Of a stretch of 64,000 nucleotides of DNA, positions 6,877 to 13,242 are shown piece by piece. Positions within the stretch are counted from its first letter, which is position 1. Each line of letters begins with the position of its first letter. A program made the translations under genes and the position numbers. The notes beneath the pieces were generated by a model. The model was given only the letters and a program-made list of their open reading frames with translations. It ran no database searches and had not been told where the DNA came from. Origin of the DNA: Streptococcus sp. D7B5 (GTDB lineage Bacteria; Bacillota; Bacilli; Lactobacillales; Streptococcaceae). The DNA lies in contig NZ_CP121467.1 of NCBI RefSeq assembly GCF_029691405.1, positions 1,798,001 through 1,862,000 of the forward strand, in the 5' to 3' direction.

Positions 6877-9800
6877 ATGGATAAACGATTTTTTGAAAAA
6901 CGCTGTAAGTTCAGTATTCGTAAGTTTACGCTTGGAGTAGCTTCGGTGATGATTGGAGCGACTTTCTTCGCAGCTAGCCCAGTATTAGCTGATCAAGCAA
7001 GAGTTGGTTCAACAGATAATTTGCCGAGTGAACTAGCTGATTTGGATAAGAAGGCTAGTGATGAGGGGCACGATTTTGACAAGGAAGCTGCCGCTCAGAA
7101 TCCTGGTTCAGCTGAAACTACTGAAGGCCCACAAACAGAAGAAGAGTTGTTGGCTCAAGAAAAAGAAAAGTCTGAAAAGTCAAGCAATCTGCCAAAAGAA
7201 TTAGAAGATAAGTTGGAGAAAGCCGAAGACAATGGGCGCGAAGTTGACAAGGATCAATTGGCCCAAGATACAGGGAAGCTCGTCCCAGAAGATGTGGCTA
7301 AGACTACCAATGGGGAATTAAACTATGGCGCGACTGTTAAGATTAAGACGCCATCAGGAGAAGGTAGCGGTATTGTCGTTGCAAAAGACCTTGTCTTGAC
7401 GGTTTCTCATAACTTTATCAAGGACAGCCAAGATGGCAATATCCGTAAGGTTGTGGATAATGACCAAGGGGATGGAGATATCTATAGCATCTCTTATCCA
7501 GGATTGCCAGATGTCAAGTTTAGTAAGAAAGATATCATTCATTGGGATCGTGAAGGCTACCTGAAGGGCTTCAAAAATGATTTGGCCCTTGTGAGATTGC
7601 GTACAGTTCTAGAAAATACGCCTGTTGAAGTAACTAAAAAGCCAGTTGTTAAGAAAATTGGAGATAAACTCCATGTCTTTGGTTATCCAGAAGGGAAATT
7701 GAATCCGATTGTCAATACTACAGTTGATTTTGCGGAACCATACGGAGAAGGTGTCCAAGGGATTGGTTACCAAGGAGGAAAACCGGGTGCTAGTGGCGGC
7801 GGTATCTTTGATACAGAAGGCAAACTAGTCGGTGTACACCAAAATGGTGTAGTTGGAAAACGGAGCGGAGGCATTCTCTTCTCACCAGCTCAACTAAAAT
7901 GGATTCAAGACCACATGCAGGGAATTTCAAGTGTGAAACCAGCAGACTTGGAAGAGAAAGAAAAACCGGCTGAAGAAAAACCAAAAGAGAATAAACCTGC
8001 AACTGCGAAACCTGAAACACCTAAGACAGTAACTCCTGAATGGCAAACAGTAGCGAATAAAGAGCAACAAGGAACCGTCACTATTCGTGAAGAAAAAGGT
8101 GTTCGCTACAATCAATTGTCTTCAACTGCACAGAACGACAATGGCGATAAACCAGCCTTGTTTGAAAAACAAGGATTGACAGTTGATGCTAATGGAAATG
8201 CGACTGTTGATTTAACCTTCAAAGATGATTCTGAAAAAGGCAAATCACGCTTTGGTGTCTTCTTGAAATTTAAAGATACCAAGAACAATGTTTTTGTTGG
8301 TTATGACAAGGACGGCTGGTTCTGGGAGTATAAATCTCCAACCGATAGCACCTGGTATAAGGGGGGACGTGTAGCAGCGCCTGAGACAGGATCAATTAAC
8401 CACCTATCAATTAACCTCAAGTCAGATGGACAACTCAATGCAACGAATAATGATGAGAAACTCTTTGATACGGTCACTTTGCCAGCAGCTGTTAATGAAA
8501 CTCTCAAAAATGAGAAGAAAATCGTCCTAAAAGCTGGTTCCTATAGCAATGACCGCACAGTTGTCAGCGTTAAAACAGACAATCAAGAAGGCGTAAAAGC
8601 GGATGATACTCCTGCCCAGAAAGAAACAGGTCCGGCCGTTGACGACAGCAAGGTGACTTATGATACGATCCAGTCTAAGGTCCTCAAGGCAGTGATTGAC
8701 CAAGCCTTTCCTCGTGTGAAAGAATACAGCTTGAATGGTCATACTTTACCAGGGCAAGTTCAACAATTCAATAGAGTCTTTATCAACAAACACGAAGTGA
8801 CACCCGAAGTTACTTACAAAAAAATCAATGACACAACTGCCGAGTATTTGATGAAACTTCGTGATGATGCTAACTTCATCAATGCAGAAATGACGGTCCG
8901 TCTGCAAGTTGTAGATAACCAGTTGCACTTTGATGTGACTAAGATTGTCAACCACAATCAAGTTACTCCAGGTCAAAAGATTGATGATGAAAGAAAATTG
9001 CTTTCTACGATTAGTTTCCTCGGGAACGCTTTAGTCTCTGTTTCTAGTGATCAAGCTGGGGCTAAGTTTGATGGGGCAACCATGTCAAACAATACCCATG
9101 TCAGCGGAGATGATCATATCGATGTAACCAATCCAATGAAGGACTTGGCTAAGGGCTACATGTATGGATTTGTTTCTACAGATAAGCTTGCTGCAGGTGT
9201 TTGGAGCAACTCTCAAAATAGCTACGGTGGTGGCTCTAATGACTGGACTCGTTTGACAGCTTATAAAGAAACAGTCGGAAATGCCAACTATGTCGGAATT
9301 CATAGCTCTGAGTGGCAATGGGAAAAAGCTTATAAGGGCATTGTTTTCCCAGAATACACTAAGGAACTTCCAAGTGCCAAGGTTGTTATCACCGAAGATG
9401 CCAATGCTGACAACAAAGTCGACTGGCAAGATGGTGCCATTGCTTATCGTAGCATCATGAACAACCCTCAAGGTTGGGAAAAAGTTAAGGATATCACTGC
9501 TTATCGTATCGCGATGAACTTTGGTTCACAAGCCCAAAACCCATTCCTCATGACCTTGGATGGTATCAAGAAGATCAATCTCCACACAGATGGTCTTGGA
9601 CAGGGGGTTCTCCTTAAAGGTTATGGTAGTGAAGGTCACGACTCTGGTCACTTGAACTATGCTGATATTGGTAAACGTATTGGTGGTGTTGAAGACTTCA
9701 AGGCCTTGATCGAAAAAGCGAAGAAATATGGAGCATATCTAGGTATCCACGTGAACGCTTCTGAGACTTATCCTGAATCTAAATACTTTAACGAAAATAT

Positions 9801-13242: not shown

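What the first reader, a model, noticed from the sequence alone, without database searches (positions are those of the whole stretch)
6877..13242. GH101 O-glycanase with a built-in trypsin/V8-like protease domain
One polypeptide joins a YSIRK/LPATG-anchored endo-alpha-N-acetylgalactosaminidase (Asp1028, Glu1060) to a serine protease domain with an intact His178-Asp235-Ser306 triad. The catalytic Asp-to-Glu spacing (32) matches the pneumococcal enzyme's D764/E796, as recalled from memory, and the numbering offset (264) is close to the size of the extra domain. A protease tied to an O-glycan remover could cut mucin backbones exactly where glycans are stripped. I do not know of this architecture being described.
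Basis: partly seen in the sequence, partly recalled or inferred. Interest (0 to 1): 0.88.

Follow-up and report, generated by a model that had tools for sequence, protein, structure and literature searches.

The report
O-glycan stripper with built-in protease domain
Many streptococci close to S. oralis and S. mitis carry a surface enzyme predicted to strip sugars from host proteins, with a trypsin-like protease domain fused to its front; that domain likely cuts the proteins so laid bare, and the pneumococcus has probably lost it, though the bare architecture was already mentioned once in print in 2025.

Summary
ORF 6877-13242 (2121 aa) is a YSIRK/LPATG GH101 protein with an S1 (PF13365) domain at about residues 135-349 and an intact H178-D235-S306 triad; D1028/E1060 match pneumococcal D764/E796.

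New here: the domain occurs in five kinds of surface protein (GH101, GH29 fucosidase, GH33 sialidase, M26 protease, choline-binding protein); the window's genome has a second copy, on a fucosidase. Triad and S1-pocket His are invariant in 113 of 113 distinct sequences although contexts share only 21-43% identity; dN/dS in GH101 context is about 0.07. Front half and GH101 core have recombined between lineages, and pneumococcal GH101 appears to have lost the domain at a short repeat.

Most likely it is a working, perhaps zymogenic, protease acting beside the glycosidase. Activity is unproven.

The parts
6877..13242 (+). ORF, 2121 aa: YSIRK/LPATG protein with GH101 endo-alpha-N-acetylgalactosaminidase domains and an N-terminal S1 protease domain
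6877..6996 (+). YSIRK-type signal peptide (residues 1-40; PF04650 at 7-31)
7183..7266 (+). Low-confidence helical segment (residues 103-130), second copy of an NLPxEL-type motif; possible pro-segment (inferred)
   Evidence: sequence; AF2 pLDDT mostly under 50 here
7279..7923 (+). S1/V8-like protease domain (residues 135-349); His178 (7408-7410), Asp235 (7579-7581), Ser306 (7792-7794), His321 aligned with the V8 S1-pocket His (7837-7839)
7924..8040 (+). Linker (residues 350-388), largely Lys/Glu/Pro-rich; the right side of the pneumococcal deletion junction falls inside it
8041..8586 (+). GH101_N domain PF17995
8668..9426 (+). Galactose mutarotase-like domain PF18080
9427..10299 (+). GH101 catalytic domain PF12905 with Asp1028 and Glu1060
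10315..11880 (+). GH101 C-terminal beta-sandwich, domain 5 and GalBD-like domain (PF17451, PF21466, PF17974)
12181..12531 (+). F5/8 type C domain PF00754
12801..13027 (+). 51-base repeats coding SIALI-17 repeats (NF043031)
13123..13239 (+). LPATG sortase anchor (residues 2083-2121)
6837..6851 (+). cre-like (CcpA) site just upstream of the start codon; consensus recalled, weak evidence (2 matches in the window, 1.26 expected by chance)
13297..13320 (+). Intrinsic-terminator-like hairpin after the gene (12 such sites found in 6500-13500, 6.4 expected)

Best explanation
This is a predicted cell-wall-anchored O-glycanase of family GH101 with a V8-like serine-protease module in front, and the module is likely a working protease that cuts host O-glycoproteins where the partner enzyme removes their sugars. 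Shown here: the fusion; the intact and invariant active site; strong purifying selection; the same module in GH29, GH33, M26 and choline-binding proteins; front halves and GH101 cores that have plainly recombined; absence from pneumococcal GH101 with a deletion-like junction. Inferred: that it is proteolytically active; that it may need N-terminal trimming (the Gemella relative's S1 pocket is closed); that its substrates are the glycoproteins stripped by the partner; that the pneumococcal state is a loss.
For: Triad H178/D235/S306, oxyanion Gly304 and His321 (aligned with V8's S1-pocket His) invariant in 113 of 113 distinct domain sequences from five contexts, with between-context identity 21-43%. 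Triad also intact in 240 of 240 listed database proteins, 120 GH101 and 120 M26, all top hits. dN/dS 0.075 in GH101 context (585 of 1275 pairs with usable dS) against 0.051 for the GH101 core (543 of 741 pairs). Partners: GH101, GH29 fucosidase, GH33 sialidase, M26 protease, choline-binding. The two-protease protein is fused to GH33 in three loci (L057 by Pfam; L058 and L123 by BLAST) and lies just upstream of a separate GH33 ORF in two (L056, L117; BLAST). In the own genome 2 of 16 YSIRK-bearing proteins carry it, on GH101 and GH29. A distant CbpG-like relative has 25% identity; CbpG is proteolytic on fibronectin and casein according to the review PMC8592123 (passages).
Against: No activity was found for the closest characterised relative GhTrp with chromogenic peptides or a peptide library, and its S1 pocket is blocked by loop 2 (PMC11970125); GhTrp did not contribute to IgA1 cleavage (PMC9637739 passages). 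Position 305 (chymotrypsin 194) is hydrophobic family-wide (A/L/M/F), and the GH101-context domains have Gly/Ser five residues before the catalytic Ser where V8 has Thr. In AF2 the Ser loop and loop 2 are the least confident parts of the domain core (pLDDT blocks 65 and 71), and starting the chain at Leu135 did not improve them. No substrate evidence at all. Co-occurrence of partner types is confounded by shared ancestry.
Confidence: 0.5

Rival explanations
1. Self-processing or zymogen module: the domain mainly cuts its own or neighbouring surface proteins, or is held as an inactive pro-enzyme released by N-terminal cleavage, with no special link to glycan stripping.
For: GhTrp authors propose a pro-enzyme state. 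In the 51 distinct GH101-context sequences Leu135 is invariant and a mostly invariant run LVPEDVAKTxNGELNYGAT begins there, just after a variable stretch; in the profile alignment part of this run falls on the N-terminal part of the solved V8 chain. The linker to GH101 is Glu-rich.
Against: In the nine copies compared the linker varies in length (20-66 aa) and sequence, so no conserved self-cleavage site is seen. The domain sits in the middle of M26 proteins but near the front of the others. AF2 of a chain starting at Leu135 gave no better-ordered S1 loops.
Confidence: 0.25
2. Protease-fold domain without protease function: an adhesin or spacer derived from an S1 protease.
For: No activity measured for GhTrp; its authors keep this possibility open. 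Pneumococcal GH101 lacks the domain.
Against: Invariant triad, oxyanion Gly and S1 His over 113 distinct sequences, with low dN/dS. A non-catalytic domain should lose the triad in some lineages; none was seen (0 of 113; 0 of 240, top hits only).
Confidence: 0.2
3. Assembly or annotation artefact joining two genes.
For: None found; one other genome (G131) has the frame broken between the two parts and one (G210) an assembly gap.
Against: Same single ORF in 62 of 94 GH101-bearing species genomes and in all 120 listed of 2440 database matches.
Confidence: 0.01

Closest known systems
GhTrp, trypsin-like domain of Gemella haemolysans M26 IgA1 protease (PDB 9ect, 7uvk)
   Different: Partner is an M26 metalloprotease, the domain lies mid-protein, identity about 34%; no activity was measured.
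Pneumococcal SpGH101 (SP_0368/spr0328; PDB 3ecq)
   Same: Same locus (recU-pbp1A-GH101-aliA), 94% identity over residues 364-2012, same catalytic Asp/Glu.
   Different: Lacks the protease segment, with a junction at a short near-repeat; also lacks the neighbouring GH20-GH84 gene at this locus.
[quoted passage not shown] 2 legend)
   Same: Same architecture, reported in July 2025 for commensal strains (S. oralis and S. mitis strains are named in the section read).
   Different: One clause in the main text; no triad, evolution, selection or fucosidase/sialidase partners in the parts seen (the terms fucosidase and sialidase are absent from its main text; supplements and figures not seen).
Glutamyl endopeptidases, S1B (V8, BGP 1p3c, Esp)
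   Different: Free secreted enzymes (recalled); the Thr five residues before and the Asn just before V8's catalytic Ser are Gly and Ala in the window's domain.
CbpG, pneumococcal choline-binding serine protease
   Same: Streptococcal surface S1 protease; a CbpG-like protein of S. oralis subsp. tigurinus AZ_3a (L153) is a distant homologue (25%); CbpG is active by literature.
   Different: Single protease plus choline-binding repeats, no glycosidase.

Membership tests
GH101 endo-alpha-N-acetylgalactosaminidase (SpGH101) | GH101 catalytic and accessory domains above curated cut-offs | tested here: met
   (NF040533 4226 bits, cut-off 2900)
GH101 endo-alpha-N-acetylgalactosaminidase (SpGH101) | Catalytic Asp/Glu pair at SpGH101 D764/E796 | tested here: met
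   that these two are the catalytic pair is recalled
GH101 endo-alpha-N-acetylgalactosaminidase (SpGH101) | Release of core-1 disaccharide | not testable with these tools
   needs assay
S1 (chymotrypsin-fold) serine protease | Fold and His-Asp-Ser triad in order | tested here: met
S1 (chymotrypsin-fold) serine protease | Proteolytic activity | not testable with these tools
   closest relative GhTrp inactive in published assays
S1B glutamyl endopeptidase (V8/BGP type) | S1-pocket His (chymotrypsin 213) | tested here: met
   His321 invariant, aligned with a V8 His; its role in V8 is recalled
S1B glutamyl endopeptidase (V8/BGP type) | Thr five residues before Ser and Asn just before it, as in V8 | tested here: not met
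   Gly301 and Ala305 in the window; siaC copies keep a Thr at the first place; so Glu specificity is not claimed
Trypsin-like domain family of M26 IgA1 proteases (GhTrp) | Profile and structure match over the whole domain | tested here: met
Trypsin-like domain family of M26 IgA1 proteases (GhTrp) | Closed S1 pocket (loop 2 across it) | tested here: inconclusive
   no coordinates available; AF2 confidence low there

The most novel reading that the evidence does not exclude
A roaming S1B protease cassette that mitis-group streptococci plug into different host-glycoprotein-attacking surface enzymes (O-glycanase, fucosidase, sialidase, IgA1 protease), making anchored strip-and-cut machines in which sugar removal and backbone cutting happen in one molecule; the pneumococcus deleted it from its O-glycanase, so the textbook SpGH101 is a trimmed form.
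Probability: 0.4. Interest if true: 0.78.

Novelty: new member of a known kind. Interest (0 to 1): 0.52.

Why it matters
If active, these would be anchored enzymes that join O-glycan removal to protein cleavage, bearing on how commensal streptococci use salivary mucins and IgA1. It would explain a domain of unknown role in published IgA1 protease work. The best-studied GH101, the pneumococcal one, then appears to be a derived form without the domain, so its biochemistry may not stand for the commensal enzyme. The question becomes directly testable with a small recombinant domain and a Ser306Ala control.

Tried and rejected
Rejected: assembly artefact (same ORF in 62 of 94 GH101-bearing genomes). 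Rejected: a recent one-off fusion (12 named loci encode the domain; the 120 listed of 2440 matches share the architecture). A free-standing protease gene as the source was sought and not clearly found: a domain-sized search returned 56 proteins, of which 40 align at 53% identity or more with the big proteins and look like pieces of them, and 16 are distant. P0257 and P0259, 292 and 431 aa and 54-58% identical to the two-protease proteins from their first residue, may be shorter relatives, so a free form is not excluded. The defence-library hits (5 families, best E 4.3e-6) were judged generic S1 matches.

Led nowhere or inconclusive: AF2 on a chain starting at the invariant Leu135 did not raise confidence in the S1 loops (against 65), so the idea that this is the mature N-terminus has no support from it. 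Promoter scan uninformative (15 found, 11.3 expected). A class-level sample of 398 genomes gave strong matches only in Streptococcus, and weak ones (E about 1e-3 to 8e-6) in 13 genomes of six other genera, eight of them in one genus. Families not listed by the structure search are not excluded.

Limits: the genome survey is one genome per species. Only 19 of 29 domain-less GH101 genomes and 44 distinct domain-bearing cores entered the tree, a quick build with SH-aLRT and no bootstrap; GH101 matches under 900 aa were left out. In that tree L066 (assembly gap) and L084 (domain frame broken) carry the label noTLD only because the ORF is split. In one search, 140 extracted domains collapsed to 113 distinct and L014, a duplicate of L063, was dropped. 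dN/dS used only pairs with dS 0.05-1.5 (585 of 1275 in GH101; 69 of 253 GH29; 102 of 136 siaN; 135 of 136 siaC; 6 of 6 M26, ratio 0.21; GH101 core 543 of 741; same-protein domain 456 of 741). Of 18 two-protease proteins, 3 carry GH33; choline-binding repeats were confirmed by Pfam only for L054, BLAST supports L121 too, the rest were not classified or are cut by contig ends. Paper searches cover open-licence PMC only and all 10 were used; word-start matching means that the searches with 'GH101' could not see 'SpGH101', and none returned the one paper that does report the architecture, so further mentions may exist. No bioRxiv is held and one relevant paper could not be opened.

Full report
WHAT IS THERE. 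The ORF at 6877-13242 (+) encodes 2121 residues. Pfam finds, in order, a YSIRK signal (7-31), Trypsin_2 PF13365 (163-320; 44.7 bits, cut-off 27.6), GH101_N (389-570), mutarotase-like domain (598-850), GH101 catalytic domain (851-1141), three further GH101 domains, an F5/8 type C domain and an LPXTG anchor. NCBIfam's endo_SpGH101 model (1962 positions) matches residues 1-1957 and so already spans the protease part.

PRIOR ART. PMC12211801 (BMC Genomics, July 2025; section 12 read and passages) states in its Fig. [quoted passage not shown] That is this architecture. Its main text does not hold the words fucosidase or sialidase. Searches for GH101 or the enzyme's full name with 'trypsin-like' and Streptococcus gave no paper, nor did 'peptidase S1B' with Streptococcus and glycosidase; since they also missed the paper just named, they are weak evidence of absence.

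HOW COMMON. In 284 Streptococcus species genomes the domain matches in 81 and GH101 in 94. Comparing the two tables by hand, 62 of the 94 have both in one open frame of the same length; G131 has the frame broken between the parts, G123 has the domain itself broken, G210 has an assembly gap, and 29 GH101s have no domain. The 120 listed of 2440 database matches all carry the GH101 architecture. In a class-level sample of 398 genomes strong matches were confined to Streptococcus.

FIVE PARTNERS. The same domain family is found with GH101; with an alpha-L-fucosidase (GH29) bearing F5/8C and LPXTG; with M26 metalloproteases; and, as two tandem protease domains, with a GH33 sialidase (L057 by Pfam; L058, L123 by BLAST) or choline-binding repeats (L054). 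The genome of the window has two copies, this one and a GH29 protein at C1:1134170, among 16 YSIRK proteins. Comparing by hand, 61 genomes have both the GH101 and the GH29-type copy, 4 only the GH101 copy (G091, G123, G129, G130), 1 only the GH29-type copy (G173); the 23 GH29-type genes that I fetched all carry GH29 (24 ORFs, two of them one gene). This co-occurrence is confounded by ancestry. The two-protease protein is fused to GH33 in three loci and lies directly before a separate GH33 ORF in two others (L056, L117).

SELECTION. In 113 distinct domain sequences 16 of 230 columns are invariant: H178, N179, D235, L236, A237, P271, Y298, G304, S306, G307, G315, G319, H321, Q322, G324, W342, although contexts share only 21-43% identity. 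Three named columns all falling among these 16 by chance has probability 2.8e-4. The triad is intact in 240 of 240 listed database proteins, a biased sample of top hits. NG86 dN/dS is 0.075 for the GH101-context domain; in proteins where both were measured it is 0.069 for the domain and 0.051 for the GH101 core. GH29 0.081, siaN 0.092, siaC 0.137, M26 0.21 (four sequences). This is selection for a function that needs the triad; it does not prove protease activity.

MOBILITY AND LOSS. Copies L050 and L103 share 99% identity in the protease domain but 64% in the GH101 core, so front half and core have recombined between two GH101 lineages; which of the two moved is not settled. In a quick tree of 65 distinct GH101 cores the pneumococcal copy (L067) lies inside the domain-bearing clade through starred forks (SH-aLRT 96, 99, 100, 98, 100). 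Its locus has the same recU-pbp1A-GH101-aliA order, minus the GH20-GH84 gene. Up to the junction its DNA is identical to L003 and L005 for 42-48 bases; after it, to L009 for 46 bases and to the window for 33; they meet at a short near-identical A-rich repeat. Loss is simpler than repeated insertion at one site. Only one pneumococcal genome was read here; PDB 3ecq and the 1767-aa length given for SP_0368/spr0328 (PMC5753484 passages) agree.

MECHANISM. I commit to a working, perhaps zymogenic, protease acting next to the glycosidase. For: active-site conservation; the choice of partners, which act on sialylated, fucosylated or O-glycosylated host proteins or on IgA1 (established knowledge of these families); the GH33 fusions and neighbour pairs; and the activity of CbpG on fibronectin and casein as told in a review (PMC8592123 passages), a CbpG-like protein being a distant relative (25% identity). 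Against: GhTrp's inactivity; a hydrophobic residue at 305 and no Thr at 301, unlike V8; low AF2 confidence at the Ser loop and loop 2, not cured by a chain starting at Leu135. Glu specificity is not claimed.

VERDICT. Observation confirmed. Interpretation partly supported: the architecture is right but common and already in print in one clause; the coupled cutting is plausible and untested. What is new is the family view: one protease module in five kinds of surface protein, kept catalytically intact, recombined between GH101 lineages and apparently lost from the pneumococcal enzyme.

Noticed in passing
window 13352-21631 (+): Next gene encodes a 2759-aa YSIRK/LPXTG protein with GH20 and GH84 (NAGidase) domains and repeated F5/8C domains, no S1 domain; it shares SIALI-17 repeats with the GH101 protein. 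Present beside GH101 in L047 and L050, absent from the pneumococcal locus.
   Followed up: partly
L063:2128-8232 (own genome C1:1134170): LPXTG alpha-L-fucosidase (GH29) with its own S1 domain, CE2_N, Calx-beta and G5 domains: a second S1-glycosidase fusion in the same genome.
   Followed up: yes
L057:3888-9572, L058:1296-7181, L123: Sialidase (GH33) with two different tandem S1 domains at its front; I saw no mention of it in the paper passages read, though PMC6722419 speaks of unnamed LPXTG sialidases.
   Followed up: partly
L012/L084 (S. oralis subsp. tigurinus AZ_3a) and L025 (G131): Natural broken copies: protease domain split over two frames in the first, GH101 frame broken after an intact protease domain in the second.
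   Followed up: no
L010 (S. oralis DD24): GH101 ORF of 3473 aa with 81 masked residues, much longer than the other copies.
   Followed up: no
L069, L070, L071 (also L072, L073, cut at one end): Domain-less GH101 proteins with some hundreds of extra N-terminal residues of another kind.
   Followed up: no
window 6837-6851: cre-like (CcpA) site just upstream of the GH101 start, suggesting sugar control of the gene; chance not excluded.
   Followed up: partly
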